Positions 2,343-7,187 of a stretch of 23,266 nt of DNA are shown in pieces (the first letter of the stretch is position 1; the number at the start of each line of letters is the position of its first letter). A program made the translations under genes and the position numbers. Source of the stretch: a virus; the IMG/VR virus record IMGVR_UViG_3300047510_000289, positions 1 to 23,266 of that record, one strand, 5' to 3'. Below the pieces are notes generated by a model that was given only the letters and a program-made list of their open reading frames with translations, had not been told where the DNA came from and searched no databases.

Positions 2343-2619
2343 AGTAAAAGTTAAGAAAGCCGTTCGCAAAATTCTTGATGAGATGGGGGTCTACTACTTC
2401 ATGCCCCCAGCTAACGGCTACGGCAGGCAAGGCATCCCCGACATCGTAGGCTGCGTCAACGGCGCGTTCTTCGCTATCGAGTGCAAAGCCAAAGGCAATG
2501 TACCAACGGCACTACAAGCTGCTGAGATTATGAAAATACGCGAAGCCGGTGGTGTGGCGCTTGTCGTTGATGAGACCAACATCGAAGCAGTGCGCGTCAT
2601 AGGAGTAACGGATGTCTGA
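2326..2619 (+). CDS. VRR-NUC family nuclease, 97 aa
   Basis: The ATG at 2326 follows GCGGAGG with an 8-base spacer. The protein has the stand-alone VRR-NUC fold pattern of the PD-(D/E)xK superfamily. It starts with a basic helix (VKVKKAVRKIL), followed by GIPDIVG with D39, IECKAKG with E52 and K54, and then Q64 in the helix TALQAAEIMKI. These are the expected metal-binding and catalytic residues. Stand-alone phage VRR-NUC proteins are structure-selective nucleases that cut branched DNA such as Holliday junctions. Its position directly before the polymerase (8-base overlap) suits a role in resolving replication or recombination intermediates. Confidence 0.85.
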   Translation: MAATPEVKVKKAVRKILDEMGVYYFMPPANGYGRQGIPDIVGCVNGAFFAIECKAKGNVPTALQAAEIMKIREAGGVALVVDETNIEAVRVIGVTDV

Positions 2620-3892
2620 TGTCGTTGTGCTTGATCTAGAAACTTTTTATGACCGCCAGTTTTCTTTATCGAAAATATCAACCGAGGAGTACATCCGCAG
2701 CCCACTGTTTGAGACGATTGGTATCGCCATCAAGATCGATCACGGCCCTACCAAGTGGTACCCCAAGCCTGAAGTAAAGGCAGCACTGGCGGCTATCGAC
2801 TGGGGCAACGCAATGGTGGTAGCCCAGAACACCATGTTCGATGGTGCGATCCTCAAGTGGCACTACGGCGTGGAACCCAAGGCGTGGCTGGATATCATGG
2901 GTATGTCTCGCGCTTTGTTTCCGCACGAGAAGAGTCACAGCCTCAAGTCGCAAGCCCAGCGGGCAGGCATAGGTGCCAAGGGTGATGAAGTTGTTGCAGC
3001 AATCGGTAAGAACTACAAAGACTTCGATGCTGAGTCACTGGCGAGGTACGGCGCTTACTGCATCAATGACGTGGAGCTTACGTATGAGTTGTTCACGCGC
3101 TATCTGCGCACTGGGTTCCCCATCAAAGAGTTGCAGTTGATCGACCTCACGTTGCGGATGTTTATTGACCCCGTGCTTGAGCTGGACCGTGAGTTGTTGC
3201 AGGACCACTTGGCGGATGTGCTGGCTAAGAAGGAAGCGTTGCTCAGTAAACTGAGCGCCGACGATAAGTCTCGTCTGATGAGTAATCCGCAGTTGGCGCA
3301 GATGCTCAGAGAGCGTGGCGTTGAGCCACCGATGAAGACAAGCCCAACCACGGGTAAGCAGACACTCGCGTTTGCAAAGACCGATGAAGCGTTTAAAGCT
3401 TTGCTTGAGCACGAAGACGTTGAAGTGCAGGCGATTGTTGCTGCACGGTTGGGTGTGAAGAGCACGATCGAGGAGACACGCACTCAGCGGTTCATAGATA
3501 TGTCCTATCGTGGCAAGTTTCCTGTGCCGCTTAGATACTACGGGGCACACTCGGGTCGTTGGTCTGGCTGCTTAGTTGCCGATACTGAGGTGATTGTGTA
3601 TGATCCACAGCATGGGGTGATGACAAAACGTATCGTTGACGTACTCGCAGACGACCTTGTGTGGGATGGGGAAAAGTTTGTAGAGCACGAAGGTGTTCAG
3701 TTCAGCGGCTACCAAGAAGTCATCACATGGGACAACGTAACAGGGACACCCGATCATGTCGTATTCACAGACGCCGGCGAGATTAGCTTACGAGATGCGA
3801 TGCAGGGAGGCCACAAAATCCAAACTCCTCGAAGCCCTACCCAAGACGACGTGGACACCGCTAGGAGACTTATTCGTAACTACAAAAGATAG
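2612..3892 (+). CDS. polA: DNA polymerase A, N-terminal half (3'-5' exonuclease) fused to the N-part of a split intein
   Basis: The frame encodes 426 residues: a 319-residue N-extein plus a 107-residue intein N-fragment. The extein has a DnaQ-like 3'-5' exonuclease with Exo I D8/E10 (LDLET), Exo II D77 (QNTMFDGA) and Exo III Y149-x3-D153. It then runs through the thumb region to HSGRWSG, the start of the conserved family A R-x-S-G...NLQNLP motif. There C320 opens the intein: block A is CLVADTEV and block B is GTPDHVVFT with H382. The frame then stops at 3890-3892, with no polymerase palm or fingers. The polymerase domain is in the separate gene at 4510. An active enzyme of 609 residues would form only after trans-splicing with that protein. 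The ATG at 2612 overlaps the nuclease gene. Confidence 0.92.
   Translation: MSDVVVLDLETFYDRQFSLSKISTEEYIRSPLFETIGIAIKIDHGPTKWYPKPEVKAALAAIDWGNAMVVAQNTMFDGAILKWHYGVEPKAWLDIMGMSRALFPHEKSHSLKSQAQRAGIGAKGDEVVAAIGKNYKDFDAESLARYGAYCINDVELTYELFTRYLRTGFPIKELQLIDLTLRMFIDPVLELDRELLQDHLADVLAKKEALLSKLSADDKSRLMSNPQLAQMLRERGVEPPMKTSPTTGKQTLAFAKTDEAFKALLEHEDVEVQAIVAARLGVKSTIEETRTQRFIDMSYRGKFPVPLRYYGAHSGRWSGCLVADTEVIVYDPQHGVMTKRIVDVLADDLVWDGEKFVEHEGVQFSGYQEVITWDNVTGTPDHVVFTDAGEISLRDAMQGGHKIQTPRSPTQDDVDTARRLIRNYKR
3569..3889 (+). other. Split intein N-fragment (IntN), 107 aa
   Basis: The fragment begins with the nucleophile Cys (TGC at 3569-3571) straight after the extein sequence RWSG. Block A (CLVADTEV), a middle part with VWDGEKFVEH, and block B (TPDH, with the conserved Thr and His that activate the first splice junction) are all present. 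A conserved-looking strand (EISLRDAM) follows, and then a basic tail of about 20 residues that is probably outside the fold. With the 26-residue C-fragment, the total is about 133 residues, the size of a mini-intein without an endonuclease domain. Confidence 0.9.
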
Positions 3893-4556
3893 GGTTTTGT
3901 GCAGATGTGCTTGCGGGGTTGAGCGAGCGCTAAGGGTTAGTGACCTCCTAAGCGGTAACTCTAAGTTTTGCAGGTCCTGCTCTAGCCGAGCAAAAATGGC
4001 ACGAATGGACCCTGAAGAACGTAGGCGCCAAGCTACCGTTGCCTCTGCAGTAGCATTAGAGGTTTTGGCCGAGACCCTCCTGAATGACCCGCTACGACAA
4101 CGGTTTTCTGTTGAAGATATACAGCGCACTAGGGCTACCGCTGTGGGGGCTAAAGGTCGCTGTACAAACCCCAAAAACGTCGTCTATGAAAATTATGGCG
4201 GTAGAGGCATTGAGTTTAGATTCCCGAGTATTAGAAGCGCAGTCGAATGGATACTCTACAACCTGGGCCCTAGACCTACGCCGGCACACTCGTTAGATCG
4301 GATCGATAACAACCGGCACTACGAACCTGGGAATCTGAGATGGGCCACGCGTTCGGAACAAGCAAGAAACAAACGCCAATACAAACGAACCACTATGGGG
4401 GAGCGGGTACGAGCTATCCTAGCGCAGCGAAGTGACATCACTTATGAAACCGTTCGTCAGTGGATACATAAAGGCTTTACAGACGACGAAATTTTACAAA
4501 GGAGAAAACATGTTGGTTGCGGTATACGACATCAAAAACTGCGGGCCGAGGCATAG
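3756..4556 (+). CDS. HNH homing endonuclease lying between the split intein halves, 266 aa
   Basis: This gene is in a different frame from both polymerase halves, overlapping the first by 137 bases and the second by 47. It has a zinc-ribbon-like N-part (C49, C51, C53, then C72 and C75). Its HNH domain has YENYGGRGI, then AHSLDRIDNN with H178, then YEPGNLRWAT with N193, and QARNKR with N205. A C-terminal helix-turn-helix (about 226-250, ITYETVRQWIHKGFTDDEI) resembles the DNA-binding repeats of phage homing endonucleases. It presumably cuts intein-less polymerase genes and spreads the locus. Start choice is uncertain: ATG 3756 has a weak AGGGA upstream, and ATG 3795 is closer to the recognisable domain. 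The family is clear; specificity is unknown. Confidence 0.88.
   Translation: MSYSQTPARLAYEMRCREATKSKLLEALPKTTWTPLGDLFVTTKDRVLCRCACGVERALRVSDLLSGNSKFCRSCSSRAKMARMDPEERRRQATVASAVALEVLAETLLNDPLRQRFSVEDIQRTRATAVGAKGRCTNPKNVVYENYGGRGIEFRFPSIRSAVEWILYNLGPRPTPAHSLDRIDNNRHYEPGNLRWATRSEQARNKRQYKRTTMGERVRAILAQRSDITYETVRQWIHKGFTDDEILQRRKHVGCGIRHQKLRAEA
4496..4512 (+). promoter_or_regulatory. Strong internal ribosome-binding site for the polymerase C-half
   Basis: ACAAAGGAGAAAAC immediately precedes ATG 4510 and lies within the coding sequence of the HNH gene. This site fixes the start of the intein C-fragment and shows that the C-half is independently translated, not made by frameshifting. Confidence 0.85.
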
Positions 4557-4587
4557 GTTTGTAGCTAACGGTAGATTGGTACACAAC
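4510..4587 (+). other. Split intein C-fragment (IntC), 26 aa
   Basis: The fragment runs from the initiator Met through block F (VYDIKNCGPRHRF) to the terminal His25-Asn26, with Ser as the +1 residue at 4588-4590. His-Asn-Ser is the canonical set for branched-intermediate resolution and Asn cyclisation. The break point lies in the loop where contiguous inteins usually carry an endonuclease. Confidence 0.9.
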
Positions 4588-5460
4588 TCTGATTCGGTTA
4601 ACCTTCAAAACCTTCCATCACGCACAGCTAACGCAGGCAAGATCAAGAAAGCTATCAAAGCGCCGCCCGGTTACGTGGTGATTGACTCTGACTCCTCTCA
4701 GATCGAAGCGCGGACACTGGCGTGGTTAGCGGGGCAGCAAGACCTCGTTGATGCGTTCGAACAAAAGCAAGACGTGTATCGCATCATGGCTTCGCATATC
4801 TACGGGGTTGCGCCCGACCAGATAACAAAAGAACAACGGTTCATTGGGAAGTCAACTGTGTTAGGTTGTGGTTATGGAGTCGGGCACAAGAAGCTACAGC
4901 TCTTCCTGAAGACGGGTGCGGGCGTTGTGGTGGACGATGCGGAAGCCAAGCGCATAGTAGATACCTATCGACGGACGTACTACTGCATACCTGAGCTATG
5001 GAAAACTGCAGACGTTGCGCTCTCGATGCTGGCGGCACACATGCCGATGGTTGTGGACCGGCAAAATATCGTGAAGGTCATACCGGGCGTGGGGCTCACG
5101 CTTCCAAGCGGCACACATATCCAATACCCAGGGCTTCGGCAGGAGCGCCGGGATGACGGCACTTTGCGGTGGGTGTATGACTCACGTGGGCAGGTGATCG
5201 ACATATACGGCGGCAAAAGTGTGGAGAATTTTTGCCAGGGAATCGCACGGTGCATCGTGGCTGAGCAGATGTTACGCATCGCCAAGCGGTACAAGGTGGT
5301 GTTGACAGTGCATGATGCGGTTGCCTGTGTTGCCCCCGAGACCGAGGTTGAGGAGGCCGTGAAGTACGTCGAGGAATGTATGTCGTGGCGACCGGCGTGG
5401 GCTAAGACACTTCCCCTTGCGTGTGAGGTAGGGTGGGGTGCATCATACGGGGATTGCTAA
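4510..5460 (+). CDS. polA: Split intein C-part fused to DNA polymerase A C-terminal half (polymerase domain)
   Basis: ATG 4510 has a near-ideal AAAGGAG five bases upstream, inside the endonuclease gene, so this half is translated on its own. A further in-frame ATG at 4432 is not needed. Residues 1-26 are intein blocks F and G (VYDIKNCGPRHRFVANG, then LVHN), followed by S27 as the first C-extein residue. The extein resumes the family A motif (NLQNLPSR). It has motif A D61 (DSSQIEAR), motif B R110, K114, L118 and Y122 (LGCGYG), and motif C H268-D269-A270. L118 aligns with E. coli Phe762, and A270 replaces the usual Glu. The C-extein is 290 residues long. Joining it to the 2612 product would restore a contiguous phage Pol I. 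Confidence 0.92.
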   Translation: MLVAVYDIKNCGPRHRFVANGRLVHNSDSVNLQNLPSRTANAGKIKKAIKAPPGYVVIDSDSSQIEARTLAWLAGQQDLVDAFEQKQDVYRIMASHIYGVAPDQITKEQRFIGKSTVLGCGYGVGHKKLQLFLKTGAGVVVDDAEAKRIVDTYRRTYYCIPELWKTADVALSMLAAHMPMVVDRQNIVKVIPGVGLTLPSGTHIQYPGLRQERRDDGTLRWVYDSRGQVIDIYGGKSVENFCQGIARCIVAEQMLRIAKRYKVVLTVHDAVACVAPETEVEEAVKYVEECMSWRPAWAKTLPLACEVGWGASYGDC

Positions 5461-5474
5461 ATGTAAAAACAATC

Positions 5475-6128
5475 ATGCTCATACACTCACACTCATCGAT
5501 CAAAGACTTCCAAGGTTGCGCAAGACGGTATCAGCAGGTTCGAATCCTCAAACGGTTTAAGTCTCAACCCACCGAAGCTACGACATACGGCAATCTTGTG
5601 CACGAAGCGATTGAGAAGTTTCTCAAGGACGGCACGGAGCTACCGGAACATCTGCAACGGCACACTGAGGTGCTTGAAGGCATTCGTGATATGCCTGGGC
5701 AACGGTTCTGCGAAGAGAAGCTTGGGCTTCGCAAGGACTTCACGCCTTGCGGGTTCTTCGATAAGGACGTGTGGTTCCGAGGTATCCCTGACCTGCTGGT
5801 GGTCAACAATGAGATCGCATGGTTAGCAGATTGGAAGACGGGCAAATCGAGTCGCTATGCAGATACATCGCAGTTAGAACTCATGGCGGCTATGACAATG
5901 GCGCACCATCCCAGTGTGCTGAAGGTAAAGGCGATGCTGTTCTTCCTTGTGCCGGGGGATGTGATCCAAGCTCGGTATTATCGTGAGCAGATGCCGGATA
6001 TTCTGTCTCGATGGGCTGGGCATGCAGCAGCGATTGAGGATACTGTGGCGGTCGATGTTTGGAATGCCACGCCCAGTGGGCTGTGTAAATTTTGTCCTGT
6101 CTCACAGGACGTTTGTGAGCATAGGTGA
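5475..6128 (+). CDS. Cas4/RecB-like PD-(D/E)xK nuclease with probable Fe-S cluster, 217 aa
   Basis: ATG 5475 is the first usable start after the polymerase stop. Its ribosome-binding site is poor, so translation may be coupled to the polymerase half; an in-frame TTG lies just upstream. The core has TYGNLVHEAIEKF with H43, GIPDLLVV with D106, WLADWKTGKS with D119 and K121, and SQLELMA with Q133. This is the RecB/Cas4 arrangement of H, D, D-x-K and Q. C15 (in DFQGCARRY) and C204-x2-C207-x5-C213 match the split four-cysteine pattern that holds a 4Fe-4S cluster in AddB and Cas4. It probably acts as a DNA exonuclease in phage recombination or end processing. The metal cluster is inferred from cysteine spacing. 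Confidence 0.85.
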   Translation: MLIHSHSSIKDFQGCARRYQQVRILKRFKSQPTEATTYGNLVHEAIEKFLKDGTELPEHLQRHTEVLEGIRDMPGQRFCEEKLGLRKDFTPCGFFDKDVWFRGIPDLLVVNNEIAWLADWKTGKSSRYADTSQLELMAAMTMAHHPSVLKVKAMLFFLVPGDVIQARYYREQMPDILSRWAGHAAAIEDTVAVDVWNATPSGLCKFCPVSQDVCEHR

Positions 6129-6131
6129 GGT

Positions 6132-6383
6132 ATGGCACGTAACTACCGCAACGAGTATGACTCTTATCAAGGCAAGCCCGAGCAGATCGCTAACCGCGCT
6201 GCACGTAACAAAGCCCGCCGCATGCTGGAGAAAGAAGGTCGCGTTAAGAAAGGCGACGGTAAGGACGTGCATCACGTAACGCCTATGGCCAAGGGCGGTG
6301 GGACCACGAAGGGAAACTTGCGAGCGGTATCTAAGAGTGCGAACCGTAGCTTCCCGAGAACCCGTAACGCCGGTATGAAATGA
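6132..6383 (+). CDS. Small HNH-like protein, 83 aa
   Basis: The ATG at 6132 follows AGGTGAGGT. The protein is very basic. It has an N-terminal helical part (residues 18-40, NRAARNKARRML) and a compact HNH-type motif, VHHVTPMAKGG with H47 and H48, then GNLR with N62, then SANRSFPRT with N71. Short proteins of this type are common beside phage replication genes and are annotated as HNH endonucleases. It may be a small nicking or repair nuclease, and it is not clearly related to the endonuclease inside the polymerase locus. Four bases separate it from the preceding nuclease gene, so they share a transcript. Confidence 0.75.
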   Translation: MARNYRNEYDSYQGKPEQIANRAARNKARRMLEKEGRVKKGDGKDVHHVTPMAKGGGTTKGNLRAVSKSANRSFPRTRNAGMK

Positions 6384-6393
6384 GAGGTTTGCA

Positions 6394-7149
6394 ATGGACT
6401 ACGAACCCTTACTAAGTTTGCCGGATGTTACGTCTGTATTTCGTACTGGGCGCGGGTCAACCTACGCACACCATGCGGACGCGACGACCACACGCAATCG
6501 TAGTGGCCAAAATCACAAAGATAAATCAGAAGGGCTCCAACAACGGTCAGGTCGAACTGTTTTTGTACCACCCGAATATCTAAATCAACTCGGTATTTTC
6601 CAAAATGCTGAGATGGCCACACGGTTTGTACCAGTCACCAAAGACGGCAAGCCAACTGGGTACGCCAAGCTAGAGTTGATGGAAGACTACGGCCCCAGAA
6701 AAGCGGGGTCAGTCTTAACGACTGTGCCGTATACCACGTCACCACAAGTCGGGCTCCACCCCGTAGAGATTTGGAAAAGCGAAAGCCCGCTCGGTGATGC
6801 GGGGCGTGGGATACATTTTGGTAACGCCATCACAGAGGTGTGGCCCAAGCCTGCTCGGTTAGCTGGTAAGGCTGGTGTTGCAGGGGGTTTAGCTGGTATT
6901 GCTGGCGCTGTTAAAGCAGCTACACAAGGTGATTACGGTCCCCTGCGTGAGGCTGTTGGAGAGATGGTGACGCCGCTCGGTGCAACGCCTTCTACGGTAA
7001 ACGCCAGAGAGCAAGAGTGGATTGACCGGTACGGAACAGCTGCGCGTAAGCGCAATGAAGAAGAGGCGGCACGTGTACTAGAGAGTTTGCGAGGAGACCG
7101 CGTACCAATGCCGGAGGAGTATTCCAAAGGTGGGTGGACCTTGATTTGA
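6394..7149 (+). CDS. Unknown phage protein with Gly-rich hydrophobic segment, 251 aa
   Basis: The ATG at 6394 follows GAGAGG. I do not recognise the family. The N-terminal 150 residues are soluble-looking and Gly/Thr-rich, with SVFRTGRGSTYAHHADATTT, VFVPPEYLNQLGIF and GKPTGYAKLELMEDYG. Around residues 150-170 there is a glycine-zipper-like hydrophobic stretch, KAGVAGGLAGIAGAVKAA, and the C-terminus is charged. The stretch resembles those in phage ejected or membrane-interacting proteins, but the gene lies among replication genes. It is the last gene before the terminator at 7227. A virion-associated or membrane-active role is a guess. Confidence 0.7.
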   Translation: MDYEPLLSLPDVTSVFRTGRGSTYAHHADATTTRNRSGQNHKDKSEGLQQRSGRTVFVPPEYLNQLGIFQNAEMATRFVPVTKDGKPTGYAKLELMEDYGPRKAGSVLTTVPYTTSPQVGLHPVEIWKSESPLGDAGRGIHFGNAITEVWPKPARLAGKAGVAGGLAGIAGAVKAATQGDYGPLREAVGEMVTPLGATPSTVNAREQEWIDRYGTAARKRNEEEAARVLESLRGDRVPMPEEYSKGGWTLI

Positions 7150-7152
7150 AGC

Positions 7153-7181
7153 TTGACGTAAGTTGCGTTAGTCGGTATCTT
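7153..7181 (+). promoter_or_regulatory. Putative sigma-70 promoter of a leader or small RNA
   Basis: TTGACG (7153-7158) and TATCTT (7176-7181) are separated by exactly 17 bases. The predicted start is about 7188, at the G-rich 5' arm of the first hairpin. It lies just after the end of the 251-residue gene. The match is moderate and there is no further support. Confidence 0.4.
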
Positions 7182-7187
7182 TGAAGG

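What the first reader, a model, noticed from the sequence alone, without database searches (positions are those of the whole stretch)
2612..5460. Fractured DNA polymerase: split intein with an HNH homing endonuclease gene between the halves
Three overlapping genes in three frames replace one polymerase gene. The first ends in intein blocks A and B. The second is an HNH endonuclease. The third starts with intein blocks F and G ending His-Asn-Ser. The exteins join exactly within the conserved family A motif (RWSG then SDSVNLQNLP). Known 'fractured genes' in marine metagenomes (Dassa and colleagues, 2009) have this logic but with a Vsr-like endonuclease. Here the endonuclease is HNH with a zinc-ribbon-like part and a helix-turn-helix. 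The locus is a candidate new trans-splicing intein with an unusually short 26-residue C-fragment.
Basis: partly seen in the sequence, partly recalled or inferred. Interest (0 to 1): 0.9.

Follow-up and report, generated by a model that had tools for sequence, protein, structure and literature searches.

The report
Phage polymerase gene broken by intein–nuclease
In this virus the DNA-polymerase gene is cut into two genes that probably rejoin as proteins through a split intein, and the gap holds a DNA-cutting homing enzyme whose start signal is written, in another reading frame, inside the intein's own catalytic motif; the same mobile unit recurs in about 40 other uncultured phages.

Summary
A family A DNA polymerase gene (2612-5460) is broken at RWSG|SDSVNLQNLP. 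The first half ends in a 107-aa N-intein, the second begins with a 26-aa C-intein (own ATG and Shine-Dalgarno site). An HNH-family ORF in a third frame lies between and overlaps both. It is not an assembly error or a one-off: I found about 40 non-identical relatives in IMG/VR at this polymerase motif. An empty allele exists (L004, 98% identical). A sister phage shares a 1,243-nt identical tract over the element against 6.4% divergence around it. Elsewhere, element and polymerase histories conflict. These are signs of recent homing. Synonymous variation collapses in both frames exactly where nuclease and N-intein overlap, so the 137-nt overlap encodes two selected proteins; the nuclease start codon is CAT|G, the block B catalytic histidine codon plus one base. 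Relatives elsewhere carry unsplit inteins with the HNH hidden out of frame, a GIY-YIG ORF instead of HNH, or split halves without nuclease. Best reading: a mobile trans-splicing split intein of the 'fractured gene' kind with a dual-coded HNH homing nuclease. Splicing and DNA cleavage are inferred, not shown. New variant of a known kind.

The parts
2612..3568 (+). N-extein: 3'-5' exonuclease and first part of family A DNA polymerase (319 aa, ends RWSG)
   Evidence: phrog_17 E 2e-28; relatives' uninterrupted polymerases align across the junction
3569..3892 (+). N-intein (107 aa, Cys1, block B T60-P61-D62-H63) fused to the N-extein, with stop codon
   Evidence: profile match to unsplit phage inteins, probability 99.7, E 7e-27
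3742..3746 (+). possible ribosome-binding site (AGGGA) of the nuclease, inside the codons of block B (T58-G59-T60)
   Evidence: in relatives 20 of 28 such starts have a Shine-Dalgarno match of 4 nt or more against 28% of background ATGs; Gly59 is GGA/GGG in 31 of 35. Weak for the window itself
3756..4556 (+). HNH-family endonuclease ORF (266 aa): N-terminal helix, zinc-ribbon-like cysteines, HNH core, C-terminal helix-turn-helix-like part
   Evidence: phrog_374/3377; AlphaFold2 mean pLDDT 88; alignment of 34 relatives
3756..3892 (+). 137-nt dual-coded overlap of N-intein tail and nuclease N-terminus; start ATG = block B His codon CAT plus G
   Evidence: 4-fold synonymous difference 0.65 before and 0.22 inside the overlap in the N-intein frame; 0.73 outside and 0.42 inside in the nuclease frame (0.30 in codons 1-20)
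4499..4504 (+). Shine-Dalgarno site AAGGAG of the C-half gene
   Evidence: sequence; 33 of 35 members have a match of 4 nt or more
4510..4587 (+). C-intein (26 aa, blocks F and G, ends His-Asn)
4588..5460 (+). C-extein: palm and fingers of family A polymerase (290 aa, +1 Ser)
   Evidence: Pfam DNA_pol_A E 1e-37, phrog_17 E 3e-63
3443..4685 (.). tract without any mismatch to sister phage L002/L003, covering the whole element plus 126 and 98 nt of flank (recent conversion/homing footprint)

Best explanation
The 1,019-nt element 3569-4587 is a mobile split intein with its own homing nuclease. The two polymerase halves are translated separately; the N-intein (107 aa) and C-intein (26 aa) associate, splice in trans through Cys1, block B His, terminal Asn and +1 Ser, and release a 609-residue polymerase. 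The HNH-family protein, started at an internal ATG within block B, cuts intein-free polymerase genes at the RWSG|Q(D) site, and repair from the element-bearing copy installs the element together with the +1 Ser codon in place of Gln. Shown by sequence: the architecture, its recurrence, purifying selection, dual coding, the empty allele, horizontal transfer. Inferred: splicing, DNA cleavage, use of the internal start.
For: Same layout in about 40 non-identical elements at this polymerase motif. Splicing residues are kept: Cys1, Thr60 and His63 invariant in 34 N-inteins; C-inteins end (H/S)N followed by Ser or Cys. Empty polymerases have Gln at +1 in 72 of 74 and never Ser/Cys, so the element brings its nucleophile. 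Empty allele L004, 98.4% identical downstream. Zero mismatches over 1,243 nt against L002, while the other 3,634 nt differ at 234 sites. L115/L215: 4-fold synonymous difference 0.59 in exteins, 0.10 in the element, p 2e-19. Intein more alike than exteins in 496 of 496 pairs. Polymerase tree rejects the intein grouping L005+L113+L117, AU p 4e-5; at least 5 gains or losses. pN well below pS in N-intein, nuclease and C-half. Own Shine-Dalgarno and start for the C-half in 33 of 35. Profile of unsplit relatives finds only inteins in the PDB, 12 of 12 hits, and matches the N-intein family at E 7e-27. L209 lost the nuclease and kept both intein halves.
Against: No experiment. Curated intein models hardly see the N-intein (TIGR01445 in 2 of 34 members, best E 0.05). 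An AlphaFold model of a relative read through from N- to C-intein was poor (mean pLDDT 53), so the joint HINT fold is not demonstrated. The nuclease has no Foldseek match in the PDB, misses Pfam HNH cut-offs, and the first His of the HNH motif is not conserved. Some outliers lack CAT|G (7 of 35) or an obvious C-half start (L137, L140, L180).
Confidence: 0.85

Rival explanations
1. Genes in pieces without splicing: a homing gene split the polymerase and the two halves work as a non-covalent complex, as reported for a split phage ribonucleotide reductase (Friedrich 2007, cited in PMC10448857).
For: Both halves carry their own start and stop; split enzymes can stay functional (PMC10448857).
Against: All intein splicing residues are kept across elements whose polymerases are only about 48% alike on average; the +1 residue changes from Gln to Ser/Cys whenever the element is present; the intein parts are more conserved than the polymerase.
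Confidence: 0.07
2. One continuous protein through ribosomal frameshifting: N-intein to nuclease to C-intein by two +1 shifts, giving a cis-splicing intein with an internal HNH domain.
For: Both frame changes are +1 in most members; relatives at other sites have continuous inteins.
Against: Two shifts would be needed for every polymerase made; the C-half has a start codon with Shine-Dalgarno site in nearly all members; the N-to-C frame relation is 0 rather than 2 in L128, L130, L132 and L133; constraint in the nuclease frame begins at its ATG; L209 lacks the nuclease and keeps separate halves.
Confidence: 0.03
3. A group I intron (or other self-splicing RNA) carrying the HNH gene interrupts an otherwise normal mini-intein gene.
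For: HNH genes often sit in group I introns; the Sodalis SO-1 record calls its related element a type I intron.
Against: No Rfam family at gathering score, no intron hit even at E 10; the interval is coding nearly end to end, with dual coding at the left edge.
Confidence: 0.02
4. Decayed or mis-assembled polymerase gene.
For: The single contig alone could not exclude a frameshift error.
Against: Independent contigs with the same frames; purifying selection in all parts; dual-frame constraint.
Confidence: 0.01

Closest known systems
'Fractured genes' with split inteins and a nuclease gene in between (Dassa et al. 2009, NAR 37:2560; known to me from its abstract, text not held)
   Same: A conserved DNA-metabolism enzyme broken in two by a split intein with a free-standing homing-type nuclease gene between the halves, mainly in phages.
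   Different: Nuclease is HNH-family, not Vsr-like; the nuclease gene overlaps both intein halves and is dual-coded with block B; C-intein is 26 aa (from memory gp41-1 37, Npu DnaE about 36, N. equitans Pol 30). I could not check whether members of this family are among Dassa's 26 loci.
Unsplit phage polymerase inteins: Salmonella phage Ent2/SEP2 gp37, Hamiltonella phage APSE-1 P45, Sodalis phage SO-1 gp38, Gardnerella phage AB1
   Same: Homologous intein type (WDG..V.H.GV, TPDH, VYD..N.GPRHRF); HNH-family ORF in the interval.
   Different: Intein frame stays open, so splicing would be in cis; the HNH is entirely nested out of frame; other insertion sites.
Hidden HNH of the ShiLan element (Arsenault 2025, PMC11855218)
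   Same: Mobile out-of-frame HNH gene overlapping a host coding frame in phages.
   Different: Inserted in a methylase with no intein or intron found; its start is a GTG 18 bp into the insertion without a detectable ribosome-binding site; here the overlap partner is a functional-looking intein and both frames are under selection.
Split ribonucleotide reductase gene of a phage (Friedrich 2007, cited in PMC10448857)
   Same: Homing gene inserted in an essential enzyme gene that stays functional in pieces.
   Different: There the pieces are not rejoined (as described in PMC10448857).

Membership tests
Split intein (class 1) | Cys/Ser at position 1 | tested here: met
   Cys1 invariant in 34 N-inteins
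Split intein (class 1) | Block B T-x-x-H | tested here: met
   T60 and H63 invariant
Split intein (class 1) | C-terminal (His)-Asn and nucleophile at +1 | tested here: met
   LVHN|S in the window; HN or SN followed by S or C in relatives
Split intein (class 1) | Two fragments on separate genes | tested here: met
   Stop at 3890-3892, Shine-Dalgarno and start at 4499-4512; same in relatives
Split intein (class 1) | HINT fold | tested here: inconclusive
   Profile chain to PDB inteins (12 of 12 hits inteins, best E 0.009), but model of joined halves poor
Split intein (class 1) | Protein splicing activity | not testable with these tools
   needs experiment
Fractured gene (Dassa 2009) | Enzyme gene broken by split intein with nuclease ORF between halves | tested here: met
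Fractured gene (Dassa 2009) | Vsr-like endonuclease (in half of the loci, from memory; not strictly defining) | tested here: not met
   HNH families instead
HNH homing endonuclease | Sequence match to HNH families | tested here: met
   phrog_374 E 8e-30, phrog_3377 E 3e-28; below Pfam cut-off
HNH homing endonuclease | Canonical first His of the motif | tested here: not met
   motif reads S-[LI]-D-R-I-D-N; His178 is not among the invariant or nearly invariant columns
HNH homing endonuclease | Horizontal spread into empty sites | tested here: met
   (indirect)
HNH homing endonuclease | Site-specific DNA cleavage | not testable with these tools
   needs experiment
Group I intron | Rfam intron covariance model | tested here: not met

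The most novel reading that the evidence does not exclude
A split intein whose catalytic block B doubles, in the +1 frame, as ribosome-binding site, start codon and N-terminus of its homing nuclease. Within one intein lineage there is a series: cis inteins without nuclease, cis inteins with an out-of-frame nested HNH, fractured split inteins with a dual-coded HNH or with a GIY-YIG ORF, and a split intein that has lost its nuclease. This would make 'out-of-frame nesting, then fracture' a directly testable route by which split inteins arise.
Probability: 0.5. Interest if true: 0.78.

Novelty: new variant of a known kind. Interest (0 to 1): 0.66.

Why it matters
How natural split inteins arise is an open question. 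This family shows, in homologous inteins, unsplit forms with a hidden HNH gene and fractured forms, and ties the nuclease to the intein's catalytic codons, so that one can hardly change without the other. It also offers about 40 related natural candidate trans-splicing pairs with a 26-residue C-fragment, short enough to synthesise, for protein ligation. Finally, it shows that phage polymerase inteins, including those of well-known Salmonella and Escherichia phages, carry overlooked out-of-frame nuclease genes.

Tried and rejected
DNA-level search of cultured phages: no match. Rfam, two thresholds: no intron. PDB sequence search with N-intein and HNH profiles: nothing useful. Foldseek of the HNH model: only noise. 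AlphaFold of relative L128 read through stops from N- to C-intein to test the joint fold: mean pLDDT 53, not interpretable; a first alignment for it was misaligned by MAFFT and dropped. Human faecal record MT838483, which seemed to match part of the C-intein, is an ordinary PolA without this intein. Genome collection scan with the N-intein: only two distant hits. Dassa 2009 full text not held.
Full report
Observation. The window is an IMG/VR virus record of 23,266 bases. ORFs 2612-3892, 3756-4556 and 4510-5460 lie in three frames. The first and third are the two parts of a family A DNA polymerase (phrog_17 E 2e-28 and 3e-63; Pfam DNA_pol_A E 1e-37). The middle one matches HNH families (phrog_374 E 8e-30, phrog_3377 E 3e-28). 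The first ends with CLVADTEV...GTPDHVVF..., the third begins MLVAVYDIKNCGPRHRFVANGRLVHN|SDSVNLQNLP.

A family, not a single case. Searches with the C-half, the nuclease and the N-intein brought in about 40 non-identical elements with the same plan at this polymerase motif. In 28 of 35 complete members the nuclease ATG lies at the same place and consists of the block B histidine codon CAT plus the next G. The C-half begins with ATG or GTG at the same place and has a Shine-Dalgarno match of 4 nt or more in 33 of 35 members, against 28% of background ATGs. This excludes assembly error.

Two proteins in one stretch. Among 11 independent members the 4-fold synonymous difference in the N-intein frame is 0.65 before codon 63 and 0.22 after it, where the nuclease begins; in the nuclease frame it is 0.73 outside the overlap and 0.42 inside it, 0.30 in codons 1-20. 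The overlapped nuclease N-terminus is predicted as a confident helix (block pLDDT 96-98; residues 7-30 in the AlphaFold2 model, mean 88). Gly59 of block B uses GGA or GGG in 31 of 35 members (background 45%), consistent with a ribosome-binding site within block B; for the window itself (AGGGA, 9 nt before the ATG) this is suggestive only. These counts are not independent, since the members are related.

Mobility. L004 is an empty allele, 98.4% identical downstream of the site and 95.5% just upstream. Sister phage L002/L003 is identical to the window from 3443 to 4685 (1,243 nt) while the remaining 3,634 compared bases differ at 234 sites (6.4%). L115 and L215 differ at 59% of 4-fold sites in the polymerase but 10% in the element (p 2e-19). 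In all 496 pairs tested the intein is more alike than the polymerase; this alone could be a slower rate, but the intein tree groups L005 with L113/L117 and the polymerase data reject that (AU p 4e-5; the group was chosen after seeing the intein tree). Presence is scattered on the polymerase tree, with at least 5 changes (empty relatives were sampled only near the window). At the +1 position 72 of 74 empty polymerases have Gln and none Ser/Cys, so the element brings its nucleophile and empties look never-invaded rather than cured.

Is it an intein? Cys1, Thr60 and His63 are invariant in 34 N-inteins and C-inteins end in HN or SN before Ser or Cys. Curated intein models barely register it. However, the family matches the profile of unsplit phage polymerase inteins at E 7e-27, and that profile finds only inteins among PDB sequences (12 of 12 hits, best E 0.009: RecA mini-intein, N. 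equitans split intein, DnaX, DnaB). One cultured relative (Ent2/SEP2 gp37) is annotated as intein-containing polymerase. A joint fold could not be shown.

Relatives in other states. APSE-1 P45, SEP2 gp37, SO-1 gp38 and contigs L096, L098, L099, L172 and others have the intein open in the host frame, with an HNH ORF out of frame in the interval. Between SO-1 and SEP2, differences concentrate at the third position of the intein frame in the splicing parts (17 of 27 and 12 of 13) but at the third position of the HNH frame in the interval (68 of 118), so the hidden HNH is the selected frame there. Cis inteins without a nuclease occur in Ruminococcus and Streptococcus phages (L105, L107, L103). Split inteins two codons upstream of the window's site have an ORF that reads as a GIY-YIG nuclease (L237, L239; identified by eye only). 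L209 has lost the nuclease yet keeps both halves (element about 407 nt). The intein tree has few columns and does not fix the order of these states.

Mechanism. Best reading: trans-splicing of two separately translated halves plus homing by the HNH protein with co-conversion of the +1 Ser codon. Splicing and cleavage are inferred. Genes in pieces without splicing, double frameshifting, a group I intron and decay were considered; each conflicts with data listed under rivals.

Known and new. The logic is that of Dassa's fractured genes (abstract known from memory; text not held). Out-of-frame HNH elements in phages were described in 2025 for a methylase without intein (PMC11855218). The papers I could search describe neither an HNH gene dual-coded with intein block B nor hidden HNH genes in these polymerase inteins, but most subscription papers are not in the library. 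I therefore rate it a new variant of a known kind.

Noticed in passing
window 6380-7186: An 808-nt stretch with ORF 6394-7149 (weak match to an endolysin family, phrog_938) is present in the window but absent from sister phages L002, L003 and L004, right after a small HNH-like ORF (6132-6383): possibly another mobile insertion.
   Followed up: no
L100 5036-5794; L101 3431-3853; L246 2459-3355: Cultured phages SO-1, APSE-1 and Ent2/SEP2 have polymerase inteins with an HNH gene hidden in another frame; in SEP2 it is not annotated, in SO-1 it is called a type I intron.
   Followed up: partly
L237 3501-4680, L239 3501-4730, L240 3501-4360: Split inteins of the same type near the window's site with a GIY-YIG-like ORF between the halves (L240 is cut off by the contig end).
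   Followed up: partly
L209 3501-3907: Split intein with most of the nuclease deleted; the remaining short ORF overlaps and the halves stay separate.
   Followed up: partly
L137, L140, L180 (C-intein starts): C-half ORFs without an obvious ATG/GTG/TTG start near the C-intein; perhaps other starts or frameshifting.
   Followed up: no
L102 2731-3663 (Moraxella phage Mcat20): A small cis mini-intein of the same type, without nuclease, inside a gene whose N-terminal part reads like a ThyX-type protein.
   Followed up: no
L005 and L008, near window position 5836-5850: About 1 kb of extra sequence relative to the window within the exonuclease gene region.
   Followed up: no
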